From: Lobulomyces angularis
Taxonomy: Eukaryota > Chytridiomycota > Chytridiomycetes > Lobulomycetales > Lobulomycetaceae
Assembly: GCA_027604685.1 (NCBI GenBank)
Contig: JADHYX010000190.1
Location: 1 to 41,159, forward strand
DNA: 41,159 nucleotides
Reading direction: 5' to 3'
A program made the translations under genes and the position numbers. The notes beneath the pieces are model-generated. The model had not been told where the DNA came from. It was given only the letters and a program-made list of their open reading frames with translations, and ran no database searches. Below, one piece after another: positions 5,317 to 40,402 of this stretch (position 1 is its first letter; every line of letters starts with the position of its first letter).

Positions 5317-6740
5317 ATGAACAGGATAGCCCAAGCTATTATGGAAAGCTTATATAACTTCACTCGAGATCAAATTAAAAATGACAACAGTGCAACAACA
5401 GTTGAAAATTTAAATCAAAATTCGGACGACAGTATAGTTTTACTAGCAAAAAAATTTGAAATGAAAAACCAAACAGAAGACTTAACCGAAACAGTAAAAT
5501 CAAACTTTATAAAAAACTTTAAAAGTTTACCTTGGTTAACTTATAGATCAAACTTTCCAAAAATAGTAGGAACAGAGTTCACAACTGATTTGGGATGGGG
5601 TTGTATGTTAAGAACAGGACAGATGTTATTATGCAACTGCTTTTTTTTTAAATACTTCGGTAAATTTTGTGATCAATATGAATCAAAAGATGTTGAAGTT
5701 GATAACATTTTTCTGGAAAAAAAAAACTTTAAATTTGAAACGTATACAAAGGTAAACAAAAAAAAACATTCAATTCAAATAATGAGTTAAAATTTAAAAA
5801 AAAGATAAGGATTTTTAAACAGTTTTCATTTAATACATTTTGTTAAAATTTTTAGATTTTAAGTTGGTTTTTAGATTCAAATACATCCCACTATTCTATA
5901 CACAGAATATCCCTTTTAGGAAATCAACATGAGAAAAGAGTTGGTGAATGGTTTGGTCCTTCAACTATATCTTTAGTTTTAAAGTATAAAAAAAAAAAGG
6001 TTAATTTTATATAAACTTTGTTTTAGATCTTTAGTTGAGTCTCACAAGGAAAGCGGACTTTCCTTACATATATCGACTGATGGAGTAATATATAAAGATG
6101 AATTACCGAAGGAGGATACAAGTATTTTAATTCTGATACCACTGATGTTGGGTACACAACAAACTATTCGGAACATATAAAATTAATTTCACAAAAAAAA
6201 TTGTGATGTTAGGTCAAGGAGTTTTAAATAAAATTTACTTTGATTCAGTAAAAGCTTGTTTTGAAATACCTCATTGCGTAGGAGTTGCAGGGTAATTTCA
6301 TTACGTTTGAAGTATTTACTTTTTCGCAAAATTTAGTGGAAGACCAAATTCAAGTTTGTTTTTTTTGGGATATAAAGGAGAGGAATTAATTTTTTTGGAT
6401 CCACATTTTGTTAGACCATCAATAAATATCAAGGAACTGTCAAATTACAAATTAGAAGATTTTGAAACTTACCATTGTGAGAAACCAAAATTTACAAGTT
6501 TAAAAACTTTAGATCCAAGTTTAGTTTTGGGATTTTTCGTAAAGGATCTTAGTGATTTGCATCAATTTTTTGATTTTGTTGAGAAAAAGGTAAAAAACTG
6601 TATGCTTACTTTATTTTTAATTACAACCGCATTCTTATTTACAGAATTCACAGTTAAGCTATCCTATCTTGACAATTGAAAAATGCAAACCGAAATATTT
6701 GGATAATGTTGATTTTGCAGATTTTGATGATGATTTTTAA
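5317..6740 (+). CDS. ATG4: Cysteine protease ATG4 (autophagy)
   Basis: Peptidase C54 enzyme. It cleaves the C-terminus of Atg8 to expose a glycine and later deconjugates Atg8 from phosphatidylethanolamine during autophagy. Exons are 5317-5751, 5856-5983, 6027-6151, 6213-6291, 6337-6589 and 6645-6740, giving about 371 residues, a normal length for the family. The catalytic cysteine is Cys96 in DLGWGCMLRTGQ. The catalytic Asp and His are in LDPH (Asp277, His279), just after GGRPNSSLFFLGY. Other family signatures are RVGEWFGPSTI and LILIPLMLG. The C-terminus is acidic and aromatic (DFADFDDDF); in other ATG4 proteins this end can carry an Atg8-interacting motif, but I see no canonical W/F-x-x-L here. 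Splice phases agree throughout. The start lies in a short unstructured lead of about 75 residues and is the first in-frame ATG. Confidence 0.95.
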
Positions 6741-6936: not shown

Positions 6937-7440
6937 TTAAACAAACTATGGATCATTAAATTCCGCCTAATGATCTCTTTCAGCATCTGTCTATATCATT
7001 TTAGCATTCTATTTATCATATATAAATTCTGTATAATTACTATCATCTTTATTCCAATTATTATCAATTTTTAACGGATTTTTAACTCCTGATAATTCCT
7101 ATATAGTTTCAGCTCGTTTAGCTGGATCTCTAAAATCTATTAGTTTTATAGCTCCTTCTTCTCTCTATATTTCTTCTGCTTTTCTACCCATATCCATATT
7201 ATTTTCTTCTATATTTATTGGTATATATTCATTTATATTATATATTGGCACCTTATTATTAGTCTACTATTCCTAACGTTCCTATTCTTCTCTTTCTATT
7301 GTAGTCTATTCTTCTCGTGTTTGTATAATCTATTCTTCTCGTGTAGTACTTTTATTATCTTCTTCAATCTTACTAATTATATTAGATTCAATATTTCCTA
7401 TTGTAACTTTAAATTTCGATATTCTAATTATACAATATTA
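6937..7440 (-). other. Open frame interrupted only by TAG codons
   Basis: On the minus strand, one frame runs from about 7437 to the TAA at 6937-6939, some 166 codons, with no TAA or TGA inside but twelve TAG codons. Examples are at 7330-7332, 7306-7308, 7282-7284, 7273-7275, 7264-7269 (two in tandem), 7106-7108 and 6946-6948. Reading TAG as Gln gives a hydrophilic, protein-like product. It has a Glu/Gln/Arg-rich segment (TREEQTTIEREEQERQEQQ), then ordered-looking stretches such as IKLIDFRDPAKRAETIQ and a DNNWNKDDSNYTEFIYDK region. In-frame Gln codons otherwise number one CAA and no CAG. Out-of-frame CAG trinucleotides (GCA-GAA, ACA-GAT, TCA-GGA, ACA-GAA, CCA-GCT) are intact. An AATAAA follows the TAA. 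Upstream of 7440 all three frames look partly coding, so the 5' end is unresolved; an ATG exists at 7505-7507 in another frame. I do not recognise the product. It is either a recoded element or a decayed gene. Confidence 0.5.
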
Positions 7441-7507
7441 CATATGAAAATGAACCGTTATTCTTGGTTTTCCACTGACTCTCGTTTTTCCTCTATAAAA
7501 TATCCAT

Positions 7508-9025
7508 TCAAATATTAAACAGTTTCATCAACAAACCTTATTTTATCGAGTGAATAATGCTATCTCCTTCTTCATAAATAATAATAAGTGGCGAATTTGT
7601 TATTGCTCTATAAAAATACAGGTCTTAAAATAAAGATAAATATGCGTTTGAATGTTTACTGTTACAAGGGAAGGAAGTTGAAAAAAGAAAATAAAATAAA
7701 AAACTTGACTGTAGGTTGGTATTAGGCAAAAGTAACGACACTACTTAGCGCTTAAAAAGCATTTTTGATAGAACTCAAAAATTAATGTCAATAAAATAGG
7801 ATAAAATAAGTATTGTAAATGGGTGTTTATAAATAACGGAACACAGACAATTTATCTCATAGCATTTTATAATTTGAACTAAAACATCTTTGGATCCCAA
7901 TTTAGATAGTAATTATATAGATTTTCAATTATCGCAAACTATTGAACCCAAGTAAATCCAATAATTTTTCCTAAAATAATTAAGCTATGAATTTTTATAA
8001 CAAAGGTTTTTAAATAGTTTTAAATACTAAAATATTTTAAATGGGAATTATCTGGTATTTCAAAGATGTCTGACAAAAGGCTTTCCGAGTCATCCAATAT
8101 TAAGGGGTAAGTGCTTTTGAGGCTCTGACTTTCTTTTGTTGATCGAAGAATTTGAGGTTCAAAAAAAACCAAATTCATAAGTTCATTTAAAGTTCATTTA
8201 CGATAAAATAGGATAAATACAGTACTAAGTAGCTCGAAATAGTCTTCGATAGATTAATTAGTAAGAATAAAGTTGAAAATCTTTCTGCGTCTTCTCAGAT
8301 TTTAGCTATGATATTGAAGTTTTAAATGTACATTTTAAAGCTGCTTTTATAATCTGGCTACCGTTAATTTACTTTTAAATAAAAATTAAATTAATTACTA
8401 GCAATGACGTTTTTATATTACTGTGACCATAAACTTTAAGATATAGATTTAAAATTTTATTGTAAAATGAGAAGTTGTGTTCGTATAAGCCGAATTTAAA
8501 AAAGAGTCGATCTTCTCCTGTTTGAGTTGTTGGTGGGGGGAAAAAATTTATCAAGAAAAAAAATGATAATAAATATGGAGTTTTCAGAGATGAGTAAAAA
8601 TGCTCAAAGATGTTTTTGGTGAATTTGGTCTTTCCTTTTTTAGAGGTCCAATAACATGTAACTTAACAAAATCGCGTTAAAGCAAACATTGAAGAAACTA
8701 GGTATTGGCAGAAAGCAAAAACATCAAATATTACAGTTAAAGAGTAATCATCTTAGATCTATACTTGGCATGTTAAATTTAGCATATCTGAATTTGAGTT
8801 GGATTGAGTTGAATTTGCAACTTAAATTTTTCGGTAAAGCTTTGAATTTCGCGCCTTTCTACATTGGGCCCTTTTAAGGGGCAACTAAAAGAGTAAAGAA
8901 AAAGAAAGAAAATTTTTCTAATGAATATTGTTAAAATTTAAAGCATTGTAATCTTACTATTCTACTATAGTAATAAATATAGAGTTTTCTCTTCACAAAA
9001 AAAAAAAAAAAAAAAAAAAAGCAAA
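7508..9025. other. Intergenic, no gene seen; poly-A tract and 19-bp direct repeat
   Basis: I find no convincing gene; the longest frames are short and lack coding character. Two 19-base segments, 8567-8585 and 8971-8989, both reading TAATAAATAT(G/A)GAGTTTTC, match at 18 positions. The second contains AATAAA and is followed by about 23 consecutive A residues near 8997-9020. Confidence 0.5.
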
Positions 9026-12100: not shown

Positions 12101-15100
12101 AGGAATTAAAGGCATTGCTTTAGGTTTAGATCCATCAAAATCGATTAAAGCTTTGTCAGAATTAGAAGTCAAGGTTGGTTCAAATGGACCTTCCCTAGAT
12201 TTCGCCAAAATGGTTCCATGGTTAACTAAGGATTTATTACAAAAATTCCAATTAGCTGTGGCTTCTGTTGAAGTAAATGCTGTTGCCAACGGATTGCAAG
12301 TTGTTGCTGGTAAAATAACCTTTTTTTTTTCAATTTAAAAAATATCATTTTGAATTTTAAGGTGTGAATCTAAACAATGTTGCTCCCCTGACTGTTAACA
12401 TTGGTGTATTGAATTTGGGTGTATCATTAACCTCAACAAAACTAGTTACTGTTGGTATATCTAACATCAAGATCGTTCGTGGTCCACAACTTGCTGCTTT
12501 GAGTGCTTCTGTAACTTTTGGAAGAGATGCAGCTTTAAAAGAGAAAGTGAAGGATTTGGTGGACAAAGTTCTTAATAAAAGATTGGCTTTGATTGAAATT
12601 GGTGGTATCTCTTTGGGACACTCAGCAAATGATAGAATTACTGCCTTTGAACAATTAACTCTTCCGTTCCCTCTACCTGAACTGAACTTGGGTTCATTAG
12701 GTGGATCATCTGGTGGTTCAAGTGGTTTGTTGAAGATGCTCAATAAAGCAGATGTTACTGCTGTTCCAGATGGCCTTAATGTTGCATTAGGCATAAATTT
12801 TGCAGGAGCTCCATTTAATGTGGTGGTTAGAAACCTTTACGTCTCATTGGATGTATTTTTACAAAACGCACGTATATTAGGAGTTTCTATTAACAACATC
12901 AATATGTCCGCTGGTAGAGCTGCTCAAGTTCTTAACCTTCCAATTGGCCTTGCGATTTCTAAGGATCCAAGTGTTGCAAGAAGTCTTGCTGGACTAATTA
13001 ACCCTATATTCCAAGGGAGACCTGCAAACCTTGCCCTTGCCATTAGAGGTCTCAAATTTGGTTCAAGTCCATCAAATATGTTTGATTTTGCAAGCTTAGC
13101 TGAATTAAGTTTCCAATTACCATTGCCAGCTATGGATGTCAAATCATTATTTAATAAAGGTTCATCTAGTCAAAGTGGCGGTATCACCAGTTTATTGAAA
13201 AAGGTTGATGTTACTGCTGTAGCAAAAGGACTTAATGTTGGTTTAGGGTTAGCTTTCCCAGGGGTAGGATTTGAATTAAATGTTCACAGTCTTTTCCTTT
13301 CAGTTGATCTTTTCATGGAAAAAGTAAGACTAGTTCAAGTAGCTTTGGACAACCTTAATGTTGCTGCTAAAGATGCTCAAATTTTAGCTCTTGCTATTGC
13401 TGTTAACTTTGCACCTGAAGCGTCAAATGCCGCTCAAACTGTTGCCACGTACCTTAACCCAATCTTAGCTGGTCGACCTGACGTTTTACCACTTTCCATT
13501 ACTGGATTAAGATTTGGTTCTAGCCACGCAACAATGTTGGATTTATTAAGTCTTATTGAAATCCCATTACCTCTAGATCCAAGTTCCTTGTTGAGTGGTA
13601 TCTCTGGTGGAGGAGCTGGAAAGCCTGGTTTGAAAGATTTATTGAAAAAGGTTGATGTTACTGCAGTTCCAAAAGGACTTTCAGTCGGACTAGGTCTTGC
13701 TTTCCCAGGAGTTGGTTTTGAATTAAATGTTCGTAGTCTTTTCCTTTCTGTTGAACTCTTCATGGAAAAAGTAAGATTAGTTCACGTAGCTTTGGACAAC
13801 CTCAATATTGCTGCTAAAGATGCTCAAATCTTAGCTCTTGCCATTGCACTTGACTTTGCACCTGAAGCAGCTGATGCAGCTCAAACTGTTGCCACTTACG
13901 TAAATCCAATTTTGGCTGGAAAGCCTAGTAAATTACCACTTTCAATCTCTGGATTAAGATTTGGTTCAAGTCCTTCAACAATGTTAAATTTATTAAGTTT
14001 AGTAAAGATACCATTACCACTAGATCCAAGTTCATTGTTGAGTGGTATCTCTGGTGGTGGGGCTGGAAAACCTGGTTTGAAAGATTTATTGAAAAAGGTT
14101 GATGTTACTGCAGTTCCAAAAGGACTTTCAGTCGGATTAGGTCTTGCTTTCCCAGGAGTTGGTTTTGAATTAAATGTTCGTAGTCTCTTCCTTTCCGTTG
14201 AACTCTTCATGCAAAATGTAAGATTAGTGGATGTTGGCATTGATAATATTAATATCACCGCTAAAGACCCTCAGGTGCTAGCTCTTCCAGTTGCTGTCAA
14301 TTTCGCCCCAGAAGCTGAAAAAATTGCTGAAACTGTTGCTAACGCTGTTAACCCTATCTTAGCCGGTAATGGAGGAACTATTCCACTTACCATTTCTGGA
14401 TTAAGATTTGGATCAAGTGCTGCTGCAATGTTTAACTTTTTAAGTCTGGTAAAGGTTCCATTACCTGTTAATCCGGGAAACATTTTAAGCGGAATTGGTG
14501 GCTCAACACCTGAAGGTGGTTTGATGAGTTTATTAAGAAAACTTGATGTAACCGCTGTGCCAAAGGGACTTTCTGTTGGTTTAGGTTTAGCTTTCCCAGG
14601 AGTGGGTTTTGAGCTAAATTTGAAGAGCTTGTTTGTCTCTTTAGATGTTTTATTGGATAAAATTAGACTAGTTCAAATAGGACTAGATAACGTTAACGTT
14701 AACGCAACTGGCGCTCAAGTGTTATCTCTTCCATTCGCACTAAACTTTGCTCCAGAGGCTCAAAATGTTGCTCAAAATGTTGCTGGAATTGTTAATCCAA
14801 TTTTTGCCAAATTAACAAATAACACTGTTCTTCCAGTTGGTATATCGGGATTAAGATTTGGTTCAAGCCCTGAAACTATGTTCAATTTATTAAGTTTAGT
14901 CCGAGTTCCTTTACCTGTTAATGTAAAACCTATACTTGATAAACTGGGAGGATCTTCCGGAGGTCCAGGATTAGATTTCAAAAAAATCCTTGCATTAATT
15001 AAAAGTGTTGACGTTGCCACAGTTGAATCTGGCATTAAGCTTGGATTAGGTGTTGCACTCCCAGGAGTTGGTTTTGAATTGAATTTAAAAAGCTTCTTCT

Positions 15101-17063
15101 TTGAAATTGAGATTATTCTAAACAGAATTAGACTTTTACAAATTGCTTTAGCCAATGTTAATGTTGCTGCTAAAGATGCTCAAATTTTAACACTTCCAAT
15201 TGGATTAAACCTTGCTCCAGAAGACCCAAAGATCGCGGAAATGGTAGCTGCTGTAGTTCAGCCGATAATTAATGGGGACTTCTCAAAAACCTTCTTCGCT
15301 GGTATTAAAGGTTTGAAATTTGGTTCAAGCAAAAGTACACTCTTTACTTTATTCAGTTTAATTGAAATCAATCTACCTATAAAATCTGAAATTTTCCAGA
15401 CAATTGGCGGTGGTGCTACAGAGAGTGCATTAGCTCTTCCTAAAATTACAAGTCTTACTGGCGGATTTTTACCAGATGTTTCAATGGAAGTAAATGTTGG
15501 CTTACAACTAACTACTCCTTTACCATTTGCAGTTACTGCTAACATTGGTTATTTAGGAGTTGATATCCAATTTGGTGCATATAAAGTTGCTACTTTAAGT
15601 GTTTCTGGTACTACTGTTAATGGTGCAGGTGCCATTGGTACTAGTTTGAAAGTTGCATTTTACAATAACGCAGAAAATGAATTAGAAGCCCGTTCATTTG
15701 TTTCTTGCTTTATTGCTCCTCTTCTTGGTCCTGGAGCAGGATGTGAAAACCATCGTATCAACATAAAAAATATTCGCATTGGTCACACTAGTTCCCAAAA
15801 CTTTGTATTCCTCTCATTACTATCAAAAGAATTATTAGTGGATATTAGGGATGTGTTGAAATTGGCTTCTGGAGGAAGCAGTGGTTCTGCTATCGGTTTC
15901 ACTAATGGGGATATTACTTTATCTGAAACTGGTGTTAGCATTGCTGGTGACCTCACTCTTAACCTAGACTTCAATGTAAACTTAAATCTAGGTTATCTTA
16001 ACTTATTGCTGATCCACAATACCGGTAAATCAAAAATTGTCATGAAGTAGTATTTATTCTTTTTTTTTCAGGTCTTTCTACTGGAACTGCTGGATCTCCT
16101 ACCACAATGTTGGTTAATGTAGTCGTTGAAAACTTGGTCATTAGTAACAGTAGTCCACAAAGAATTGGTGCAACAATCAATATGGGAACCACACCTTACT
16201 GGCAAGAAATTGCAGGTTCATTACTAAAAAAGGTTGATATTCCAATGAGCTATGCACTTTATAACTTCCGATTCGGTAAAGACGCCGCCTCTGCTGTAAC
16301 ATTGTTTTCTAAAGTTCCAATTTTTGTACCTTACATTCAGCAAATCCTTAAGAAACTTGCGAAACCAGATGCTCCAAAAAAACCATTACCGTTTGGAGCT
16401 CTATTTTCAGGTGAAGAAGAATTCGGATTTATGCTCACGTACTTGTTGGAAGGACAATATAGTACAGTACTCCTGCATGTATGGAATGCCGCTACCTTTA
16501 ACATCAATTTAGGTCAAGTCTCCATTAACATCTTGGACGCATTACCCACTGGCTTATTCTCTCGTATCCATCCAGTTAGAGTTGGTAATTATGTAAACAA
16601 CTACATTCCTGAACAGAAGTTGAATTTACTAAGTCAAGAGGGATGTTCGTCTAACTGCAATAGGACATCTTCTATTGCCATTATGTTAGGGCCAAGTGGT
16701 GTTATTGGAAGTGATGTTATTAAAGATAAACCTGCTGGTACACCTGGTTTTGACGGTGATTGGTTCCAAAGTCTTCTTGAACCTTATTTGAGTGGTGGTT
16801 TATCTGGCGTCCTTGATTTGGCGAAAACTTTGGTTATTGACTCACCTGCTATTTCAAACTGTCCGTGGGTCACTGACTCCTTCAAGAATTTCCGAATTCC
16901 AATTGCTGGATTTTTACCTGCAGGAGGTTCTGGTAATGCAAGAACTGCTGTTAATAACTCAACTGTAACTGTTACCAGTGCTTCTGCTGCTTCTAGTGCT
17001 ACATCTAACGTTATCCCGACCGCTACTGCTAGTGCAATTGCTAGAAAAGTTAGAAGAAATTAA
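9180..17063 (+). CDS. Giant DUF3712-like (LEA-like repeat) membrane protein
   Basis: Exons are 9180-9386, 9433-9604, 9649-9734, 9782-10025, 10069-10431, 10475-10590, 10644-11853, 11908-12309, 12362-16024 and 16072-17063. All phases are consistent, giving about 2,484 residues. A cytosolic N-tail of about 45 residues ends in basic residues (KKRYCWGK). One membrane helix follows at about 47-72 (FVITITLLTFIFIVALGF), with no cleavable signal peptide, so it is probably a type II protein with a huge non-cytosolic part. The body repeats the pattern of fungal DUF3712/LEA14-like proteins, with conserved GLRFGSS and NPI blocks. Residues about 1064-1970 are six tandem units. Cys pairs near 15710-15740 and 16640-16660 may form disulfides. 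The C-terminus is Ser/Thr/Ala-rich and ends RKVRRN. Yeast vacuolar Tag1, also one helix plus such domains, is a possible relative, so a lipid-binding or vacuole/cell-surface role is inferred, not shown. Confidence 0.85.
12751..15470 (+). repeat. Six tandem coding repeats of 148-155 codons
   Basis: Unit starts, at the codon for Asp in the DVTAV-type motif, are 12751, 13207, 13654, 14101, 14545 and 15010, so spacings are 456, 447, 447, 444 and 465 bases. Each unit has the order DVTAVPKGL, GLGLAFPGVGFELN, a hydrophobic LF(L/V)S(V/L) strand, APE, NPI(L/F) and GLRFGSS, then a Gly/Ser-rich linker. Units 2, 3 and 4 are the closest. The boundary stretches before 13654 and 14101 (SSLLSGISGGGAGKPGLKD) are the same at the protein level. 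Confidence 0.9.
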
Positions 17064-34150: not shown

Positions 34151-37032
34151 ATGTCTATCGAACAATATGGAAAAAATTTTCCAATTTTATTAAGAACACC
34201 CTCTCCTAGAGGAAAGGTTGAATTGTTAGAAACCATTGGAAAAGGAAACTATGGCTATGTCTATAGGGTGAAATCAAATTGATATTCATCAAGAATAATT
34301 AAAACTCATTGTAACTGTTTTTTAGGGACGTTTAGTTGCAACCAAAGAAACAACAGCAGTAAAGGTTGTTTTTTTGAAGGAGGATGAACTAAAGGAAACA
34401 TTATTAGAAATGGACATTTTGAGACAATGTAATCACCCAGGTATTACGCGGTATATGGGGTGTTTTTTGAAAGGTTTAGATTTATGGATATGTATGGAAT
34501 ATTGTGGAGGTGGTGCACTTGATACCCTATATAGAAGTATACTTATAAAAAATTTTTTACAATGCAATCTCTCAGAACTGATATTCATTTAATTGTATAG
34601 CTTTGCGGAAAAATTTGAACGAAGATCAAATTGCATCAATTTTATACGATACTGTTTCAGTATATATATATTTTTTTTAATAAAATGACGAAATCTGTTT
34701 ATGTCAAACACTATAGATAATTTGTTAATTGAAACTAAATTTCATATCATTTTAGGCTCTAGATTATCTGCATCGGGAAGTATTTTTAATTCATAGGGAT
34801 ATAAAAGCAGGGAACGTATTTATTACTGAAAACGGTGAAATTAAACTGGGTAAATAACATGTGTGATATTTTAACTGTTCAAGGTGATTTTGGAGTTTCG
34901 GCAAAATTAAAATCTTCAAATGGTAGGGCAAGAACCTTTATTGGTACACCTTATTGGATGGTATGGGAAATTTGTAAGACTTATAAAAAACTAAACAAAA
35001 CTGCAGGCTCCAGAGGTTATTATGACAGATCCTGAGTCTAGCTCTTCAAAAACAGCTACCTATGATACTAAGGCAGATATATGGTCAATCGGTATATATT
35101 GCAATTAAAACTCTCATTATTTGGATCGCTAATTTTTTTCAGGAATTACGGCAATAGAAATTGCTGAAAAAAACCCACCTTTAAATGACATCCATCCAAT
35201 GAGAGCCTTATTTCTAATTCCAACATCAAACTTAGGATTAGCAAAACCAAAAAATTGGTCTAAACCATTTCAAGATTTAATAGCAGAGTGTTTAATAAAG
35301 GATCCTAATACTAGACCTACAGCAATTCAAATTCTTAATCACCCTTTTTTTGCCAAAGCCAAAAATTTGGATAGAAGAAGAATAATCTTTGAATTGGTAC
35401 AAAAGGTACGAGTAATACGAGAAAAGAAAAAAGCAGGCTTAGATATTGACGATGAAGAGGACGAAAAGAAAGAAGAGATTCCACAAAAAGTGCTCAGTGA
35501 AACTATGAAATTAGCAAAAAAAGCTCAAAATGCTTCAAATAAAGATGTTAGCTCTAACGTATTATTTATTATTTTATTAAATTGAAAGAGGATGGAGTAT
35601 TTATTTTGTAAAATTATTAATTTATTTAGTCTAAGGATCAATTGGTAGATGTATCCATTGTTATTGATAATACTTTTAAAACTTTTCAAGAAACACAGCC
35701 TGCCGTCAAAAGCGTCCTTTTGTGGAAGCCAATTACTAGTGTTTTGAAGTTAGAAGTTCAGACAGGGGATACTCTAGATAATCGTTACACTTTGATTGGA
35801 ACAACCACAGGCCTATATTTTATTGATATGGAAAGAGATACAGGAGCTGGTGAAATGATTCCTTTGATTAGAAACATTAGGTTTAAGCAAATTGAGGTTG
35901 TACAAGAATATGGAGTTTTAATGGCATTGAGTGGTAAACATGATCACATTCGACAATATAAATTGGAAAGTTTAAGAAAGTTGATTAAATATCTTACTGG
36001 AACACCAGTTTCCGCAATCATGCATCCAGATGGTTCGCAAGATAAAGCAGAAGATGAAGATCTTTACAAGCACTTAAAAAGAGATGTGGAAGATGAGGCT
36101 GTTTTAATATCGAAATGGACATCAGATTATATAAAAATTCTTGGAACGAAGAATACACAATATTTTAATATTCAAAAAACAGAGACTTCAATATATATGG
36201 GTGCCCTTTTTAGACAAGATTTGCTGTTGTTTCAATGGGCAAAAGAACCATATTTGAAATTCATGAAATTAAAAGCATTTTGGTTACCAGAGACCCCAAA
36301 GAAATTAAAATTACTGCATGATGGGTTATCAATAAAAGAAATTTGTCTTATGTACAACAACGAGTCTAATTTAATAAACCTTGATGATAGTAAAGTAAAG
36401 GAGGTAAAGGTTCATAAAGAATTTTCAACAAATAGCAACAGTAAAAATCCAAAGTGGGAAACATTTTCACAGATTCCTTTTAGTGACAGTAAGTTAAAAG
36501 AGTTAAGAGAATTAAGTGAAAAATCTGGTACCATAAATAAAAAATTATTGGCTGTTGGAGGAAATACTCCTAAGACTAATCAAGTTGTCGGTGATAGATA
36601 TTTTTTGGCCACATATGATTGTCACACTCGTGTAACAGATATTGACGCACAACCAATGGTAACATAATTTTAACAAAATAAAGGTTGAAAAATTATCTTT
36701 AGATTGGTAGTGGGGTCGGTGGTTGGAAAAGTGGAGTAACATGGCAAGAGCCTCCAATTGATTTGATATTACGGCCAATAGATTTTGTAATTGCGATAGG
36801 AAAGCAAAGCTGTCAAGTTGTAGATTGGAAATCTGCCTCATTGGTACAAGAATTTACTTTGGATAAGGAGGGTATTGCGAAATTAATTTGCGATAAACGT
36901 GGAGGAATTTTATGTTCGGTTGAAAGAAAAAAGAGAGGTACAGTGGTTTTCAAAGTTTATGAACCCAATGTAAGCTTAAATAAAGGAGGAGCCAAAGTTA
37001 TTAACAGTAGTGATGATATCACCAAAAGTTAA
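34151..37032 (+). CDS. GCK-type STE20 protein kinase with C-terminal citron homology domain
   Basis: Nine exons: 34151-34267, 34326-34536, 34601-34659, 34756-34849, 34884-34960, 35007-35091, 35143-35558, 35630-36658 and 36703-37032, giving about 805 residues with consistent phases. The kinase domain spans about 22-300: Gly loop IGKGNYGYV (29-37), Lys52 in TAVKVV, HRDIKAGN with catalytic Asp144, DFG 162-164 and the STE20 signature GTPYWMAPE (APE 187-189). A Lys/Glu-rich linker follows. A citron homology (CNH) region runs from about 376 to 790, with LLWKPITSVLKL, LIGTTTGLYFID and LSGKHDHIRQYKL as typical blades. This matches MAP4K/GCK-I kinases, which act upstream of MAP kinase cascades and small GTPase signals. 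All catalytic residues are present, so it should be active. I cannot assign a specific MAP4K orthologue. Confidence 0.92.
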
Positions 37033-40080: not shown

Positions 40081-40402
40081 AGAGTTCTACTAGATGGTTG
40101 TTTGCCCCGTGCCTCTATGTGTTTCTTTCCAAACCTTATAGTACAGGAAAATTTGTACAATAAATTTTAACGCCCCATGAAGTCTCATTTTTCCACTAAT
40201 TCACCAGGCTGCCACCAGCTTCGCCTTAATTTTGAAACAAATTCAGTAACGAAATTGTGAATACAAAATTAATACTTTTATTTAACATTTTATAATGTAA
40301 AAATTGTAAAAATGCGATTTCTTAGAACTACTACTGCCAATTATGTTTAAAATTTTAAGTGTATTATTATTTAACCTTTCATCTATCTATTTCTAATGTC
40401 CT

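What the first reader, a model, noticed from the sequence alone, without database searches (positions are those of the whole stretch)
6937..7507. Open frame read through twelve TAG codons but no TAA/TGA, beside standard-code genes
About 166 minus-strand codons (7437 to 6940) contain twelve TAG and no TAA or TGA. That is unlikely by chance in AT-rich DNA, where TAA should be the commonest stop. The TAGs sit in Gln-like contexts in a Glu/Gln/Arg-rich product. In-frame CAG is absent and CAA occurs once, whereas CAG out of frame is intact. General C-to-T decay or RIP-like mutation at CpA would have hit all CAG and also made TAA. A closing TAA is followed by AATAAA. Neighbouring genes use CAA/CAG for Gln and have no internal TAG. 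This suggests an element, such as a mobile element, virus-like insert or transferred DNA, from a system where UAG means glutamine. Upstream of 7440 the frame is unclear and one alternative frame shows TAA in Gln-like places.
Basis: partly seen in the sequence, partly recalled or inferred. Interest (0 to 1): 0.8.

Follow-up and report, generated by a model that had tools for sequence, protein, structure and literature searches.

The report
Mitochondrial DNA scrap in chytrid nucleus
The stretch full of TAG codons is a small piece of the fungus's own mitochondrial DNA that sits in a nuclear chromosome; mitochondria of this fungal group are known to read TAG as leucine, so it is an ordinary relic and not a new glutamine code.

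Summary
In detail: 166 minus-strand codons (7437-6940) carry 12 TAG and no TAA/TGA; 0 of 200 simulated windows reach 12 (maximum 9). The glutamine reading does not hold. In the same assembly 453 bases (7406-6954, with 11 of the 12 TAG) match contig C145 at 450/453. C145 is mitochondrial: cob, nad3, nad5 and atp6 frames full of TAG. There the frame lies downstream of a plasmid-type DNA polymerase gene, facing a phage-type RNA polymerase. Window 7421-7515 is a second fragment that recurs in nuclear contig C39. So this is a composite nuclear insertion of mitochondrial DNA (NUMT). At 40 aligned TAG sites in nad1 and nad5, relatives have mostly Leu and other hydrophobic residues, Gln at none. A tRNA with CUA anticodon and long variable arm lies on mitochondrial contig C126. 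TAG = Leu (NCBI table 16) is already described for chytrids (PMC6131824, PMC5304391). A database hit from a contig of C145's exact length names the organism Lobulomyces angularis. Limits: the frame itself has no homologue, and two C145 plasmid-gene pieces score slightly better with Gln, so Leu in this very frame is inferred from the host code.

The parts
6954..7406 (-). NUMT fragment A: copy of mitochondrial contig C145:11675-12126 (downstream open frame of the plasmid-type DNA polymerase region); holds 11 of the 12 TAG
   Evidence: 450/453 identities, one gap; TAG positions
7407..7420 (-). 14 bases between the two fragments, matching neither
   Evidence: junction print-out
7421..7515 (-). NUMT fragment B: 93/95 identical to nuclear contig C39:14915-15008; its first 37 bases 35/37 identical to C145:14985-15021
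6937..6953 (-). sequence past the junction: holds the 12th TAG (6948-6946) and the closing TAA (6939-6937), not from the same mitochondrial stretch
5317..6679 (+). neighbouring nuclear gene, ATG4-like cysteine peptidase, two exons recognised (5317-5790 and 6356-6679)
   Evidence: Pfam Peptidase_C54, 74.9 and 63.5 bits, cut-off 25

Best explanation
A composite nuclear insertion of mitochondrial DNA (NUMT) in the chytrid Lobulomyces angularis. Fragment A comes from an open frame downstream of a mitochondrial-plasmid-type DNA polymerase gene (dpoB) that lies in the mtDNA; fragment B comes from a related stretch. The mitochondrion reads UAG as leucine with a dedicated CUA tRNA, so its frames hold many TAG and avoid TAA; moved into the nucleus the piece is a TAG-only frame with no role. 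Shown: near-identity to a mitochondrial contig of the same assembly, nuclear-type genes on both sides in the window, TAG on Leu-like positions in mitochondrial genes, a mitochondrial tRNA with CUA anticodon. Inferred: capture of mtDNA pieces at a chromosome break, no translation in the nucleus, leucine charging of that tRNA, and that UAG meant Leu in this particular frame.
For: C145 match 450/453. C145 holds cob, nad3, nad5 (two exons) and atp6 frames above Pfam cut-offs when TAG is read as Leu. The window holds nuclear-type genes on both sides: DEAD helicase and ATG4 pieces, CNH domain at 35642-36667. TAG sites: nad1 22 of 24 aligned, L13 V2 A2 I2 R1 F1 S1; nad5 18 of 18, L7 I6 V2 W1 M1 F1; Gln 0 of 40. 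109 TAG sites compared among related frames: 194 cells, L58 I33 F19, Q4. Pfam scores better with Leu in 5 of 7 pairs that pass a cut-off. tRNA with CUA anticodon on mitochondrial contig C126. The same code is in print for chytrid mitochondria.
Against: The frame itself has no homologue, so its TAGs were not tested directly. Two pieces of the C145 plasmid genes score slightly better with Gln (RNA polymerase end 35.4 against 32.5 bits, DNA polymerase piece 97.5 against 95.6). A tract upstream in C145 mixes TAG with CAA and CAG. The mitochondrial source of window 7421-7478 was not found in the assembly. Leucine identity of the tRNA rests on its long arm and the alignments, not on an assay. No reads were available to exclude an assembly chimera.
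Confidence: 0.94

Rival explanations
1. An element from a system where UAG means glutamine (virus, transposon, transferred DNA).
For: The frame is rich in Glu/Arg/Lys and reads smoothly with Gln; two C145 plasmid-gene pieces score 2.9 and 1.9 bits better with Gln.
Against: The source lies in mtDNA whose conserved genes have TAG at Leu-like sites, Gln at 0 of 40. 16 TAG sites in DNA-polymerase frames face Leu at least once in 11 and Gln in 0. In the C145 RNA polymerase the four TAG sites of one motif face L, C, L and V in phage N4 RNAP2, a weak match with E 0.047. No relative in proteins, PHROGs or phage records.
Confidence: 0.02
2. An assembly chimera: a mitochondrial read joined to nuclear contig C190, with no real insertion.
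For: 99.3% identity needs little time; no reads were available to check.
Against: The insert differs from C145 by two substitutions and one gap, it consists of two pieces from different places, and fragment B recurs in another nuclear-type contig, C39.
Confidence: 0.04

Closest known systems
NUMTs (nuclear insertions of mitochondrial DNA)
   Same: Short, nearly identical copy of the same organism's mtDNA between nuclear genes, composite, without a role of its own
   Different: The source has a variant code, so the copy keeps a TAG-only open frame that looks like a recoded gene
Chytrid mitochondrial code, NCBI table 16 (UAG = Leu with trnL(CTA); Spizellomyces punctatus, Synchytrium endobioticum; PMC5304391 and PMC6131824, passages seen)
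   Same: TAG at Leu positions of mitochondrial genes and a CUA tRNA in the mtDNA
   Different: Nothing found that differs; seen here in Lobulomycetales
dpoB (DNA_pol_B_2) in linear chytrid mtDNA, as reported for Synchytrium endobioticum (PMC6131824, passages seen)
   Same: DNA_pol_B_2 frames in mtDNA, one mitochondrial contig (C82) with perfect 77-bp terminal inverted repeats
   Different: Divergent copies on three mitochondrial contigs (C82, C145, C354), with RNA polymerase frames on two of them; the C145 polymerase is split over several frames

Membership tests
NUMT | Sequence derived from the same organism's mtDNA | tested here: met
   450/453 to C145, a contig with cob, nad3, nad5 and atp6 frames
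NUMT | Lies in a nuclear chromosome | tested here: met
   Same contig carries DEAD helicase, ATG4-like peptidase and CNH-domain frames in the standard code
NUMT | Physical continuity of insert and flanks | not testable with these tools
   No reads held
Chytrid mitochondrial code (table 16) | UAG at leucine positions of conserved mitochondrial genes | tested here: met
   nad1 and nad5: L 20 of 40 sites, Gln 0 of 40; 109 sites among related frames, L58 of 194 cells, Q4
Chytrid mitochondrial code (table 16) | tRNA-Leu(CUA) in the mtDNA | tested here: met
   C126:19655-19737, CUA anticodon, long variable arm, Rfam tRNA 56.8 bits; leucine charging not assayed
Chytrid mitochondrial code (table 16) | UGA is stop | tested here: inconclusive
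   The C145 and C354 frames used were cut at TGA by construction; the cox1-RT frame has 2 TGA and one dpoB frame 3
UAG = Gln code | UAG at glutamine positions | tested here: not met
   Gln at 0 of 40 sites in nad1/nad5, 4 of 194 cells among related frames
Linear mitochondrial plasmid (source region) | DNA_pol_B_2 and phage-type RNA polymerase genes together | tested here: met
   C145: PF03175 95.6 bits and PF00940 32.5 and 26.7 bits, over the cut-offs
Linear mitochondrial plasmid (source region) | Own terminal inverted repeats with terminal protein | not tested
   Not examined for the C145 copy; C82 as a contig has 77-bp terminal inverted repeats

The most novel reading that the evidence does not exclude
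The plasmid frame that gave the insert was shaped under UAG = Gln before its plasmid settled in a mitochondrion that reads UAG as Leu, so that the C145 relic keeps Gln-like TAG positions (tracts mixing TAG with CAA/CAG).
Probability: 0.02. Interest if true: 0.65.

Novelty: new member of a known kind. Interest (0 to 1): 0.12.

Why it matters
It shows how a NUMT from a recoded mitochondrion can pass for a new genetic code when read alone, and that proteins named for this species in public databases come from its mitochondrial contig, cut at or around TAG codons (HDU92_001380 and HDU92_001381, 49,782-base contig). No new mechanism is involved.

Tried and rejected
UAG = Gln element: protein search (none at E <= 1 among 27 candidates), Pfam (best 9.2 bits against a cut-off of 27), PHROGs (best E 0.18), phage records (no match), viral contigs with the C145 polymerase pieces (no relative). 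Rejected. C-to-T decay of CAG: rejected, since the mitochondrial copy has the same 11 TAGs. tRNA scans of C82, C145 and C354 at normal settings found no CUA tRNA (one search covered C82, part of C354 and part of C145); permissive settings gave many CUA candidates that I took for chance, being inside open frames. The CUA tRNA came from C126. PDB search of the C145 RNA polymerase end piece gave only unrelated hits with E 0.56 and above. One search (RNA polymerase relatives) found one protein only, from the same contig. Paper searches gave nothing used. An early notebook guess that the organism might be Synchytrium was wrong and dropped.

Full report
What is there. Window 7437-6940 on the minus strand is a run of 166 codons with 12 TAG and neither TAA nor TGA. 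It is the only run in the window with at least 100 codons free of TAA/TGA and at least 5 TAG. In 200 first-order Markov simulations of a 41-kb window the largest number of TAG in a TAA/TGA-free run was 9; 0 of 200 reached 12, and 0 of 60 in a second set. The signal is real. The window is contig C190 of a 20.76-Mb, 533-contig assembly. It holds nuclear-type genes on both sides of the stretch: DEAD helicase and ATG4-like peptidase pieces and a CNH domain. Of 14 window frames scanned with Pfam-A, excluding the TAG frame itself, 6 gave a match at E <= 0.001 (7, of which 5 matched, two of them below the family's cut-off; 3 or more, of which the CNH frame matched): in exact terms 5 of 7 and 1 of 4, so 6 of 11 frames.

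Where it comes from. A protein search and a DNA search of the same assembly found a second copy in contig C145:11675-12126, 450 of 453 bases identical with one gap. C145 is mitochondrial: with TAG read as Leu its frames match cytochrome b with a LAGLIDADG intron frame, nad3, nad5 (two exons) and atp6 above Pfam's cut-offs, and Rfam finds a group I intron in it. C82 (68,662 bp; cox1 pieces, group II introns, bacterial-type LSU rRNA), C354 (nad1) and C126 (two Proton_antipo_M frames with 13 and 4 TAG) are further mitochondrial contigs. In C145 the frame lies downstream of a DNA_pol_B_2 gene, and a phage-type RNA polymerase gene lies on the other strand, a gene set typical of linear mitochondrial plasmids (recalled; PMC6131824 says so for the DNA polymerase). 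So does its upstream end: window 7421-7515 is a second fragment, 93/95 identical to contig C39:14915-15008 and in part (35/37) to C145:14985-15021. C39 carries an acyl-CoA dehydrogenase frame in the standard code, so it is a nuclear-type contig with a related insert. The mitochondrial source of window 7421-7478 was not found. The insert is thus a composite NUMT.

What TAG means in that mitochondrion. With TAG masked as X, nad1 was aligned to PDB chains; 22 of its 24 TAG sites fall in the stretch tallied, and against chain 7a23_H they face L13 V2 A2 I2 R1 F1 S1. In nad5, 18 of 18 face L7 I6 V2 W1 M1 F1 (chain 7zm7_5). Gln faces none of the 40 (one chain tallied for each gene). Comparing related frames with each other, 69 of 99 matches were kept after removing frames that overlap a better one; matches above 90% identity, and cells with a gap, a stop or a TAG opposite, were dropped; stretches of C62, C56 and C120, whose origin I did not check, were included. 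109 TAG sites gave 194 cells: L58 I33 F19, and Q4. This resembles Leu codons (L374 I123 F56 of 736 cells) and not Gln codons (Q74 K38 N26 of 285). Of 16 TAG sites in DNA-polymerase frames 11 face Leu at least once and none faces Gln (my count). Pfam scores with TAG=L against TAG=Q: of 9 protein pairs, 7 had a family above its cut-off; Leu scored higher in 5 (nad1 +28.2, nad5 +13.9, C82 dpoB pieces +12.9 and +11.6, C145 RNA polymerase middle +2.7 bits) and Gln in 2 (C145 RNA polymerase end +2.9, C145 DNA polymerase piece +1.9). A tRNA with CUA anticodon and a long variable arm lies at C126:19655-19737; the long arm marks Leu-, Ser- or Tyr-type tRNAs (recalled). This fits NCBI table 16. Whether UGA is stop was not settled, because most frames used had been cut at TGA.

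What is known. [quoted passage not shown] PMC5304391 cites UAG = Leu and tRNA-Leu(CUA) in the mitochondria of Spizellomyces punctatus (passages seen; the original paper was not held). A database protein from a contig of exactly 49,782 bases, C145's length, is named Lobulomyces angularis, a chytrid of the order Lobulomycetales. A library search for that name with 'genome' listed one paper, on snow-algal parasites (listing only).

Limits. The frame itself has no homologue, so Leu in it is inferred from its place in mtDNA with this code. Composition does not decide: Leu would be 1.8% without the TAGs and 9.0% with them, Gln 0.6% and 7.8%. A tract upstream in C145 mixes TAG with CAA and CAG, which would suit Gln and could also be repeat slippage. 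An assembly chimera cannot be excluded without reads. Verdict: an ordinary composite NUMT from a mitochondrion with a known variant code.

Noticed in passing
L032 1-77 and L038 8586-8662 (G000:C82, 1-77 and 68586-68662): Mitochondrial contig C82 ends in perfect 77-bp inverted repeats, with DNA-polymerase similarity near its right end (67805-68334): probably a linear mitochondrial chromosome.
   Followed up: no
P0003 against L005 2687-3490: A protein named for Clydaea vesicula, another genus, on a 3,211-base contig is 99% identical over 37% of the C145 polymerase piece: recent transfer of a mitochondrial plasmid, or contamination.
   Followed up: no
L044 4858-5009 (G000:C39:14857-15008): A further plasmid-like insert in a nuclear-type contig; it joins a C145-like stretch to the sequence shared with window 7421-7515.
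   Followed up: partly
L043 4697-4836 (G000:C120): 140 bases 98.6% identical to C82:36005-36144 (dpoB): probably another NUMT; the contig's origin was not checked.
   Followed up: no
L041 4341-5342 and L042 4946-5668 (C62, C56): DNA_pol_B_2 frames with few or no TAG, about 90% alike between two contigs; both stretches also share short repeats with window 40136-40307. Perhaps a separate element.
   Followed up: no
L005 5615-6241 (-): The C145 RNA polymerase has a motif most like phage N4 RNAP2 among PDB chains, E 0.047.
   Followed up: no
window 13189-15223: Large open frame (12364-16050) with long internal repeats, 66-76% identical; no Pfam match.
   Followed up: no
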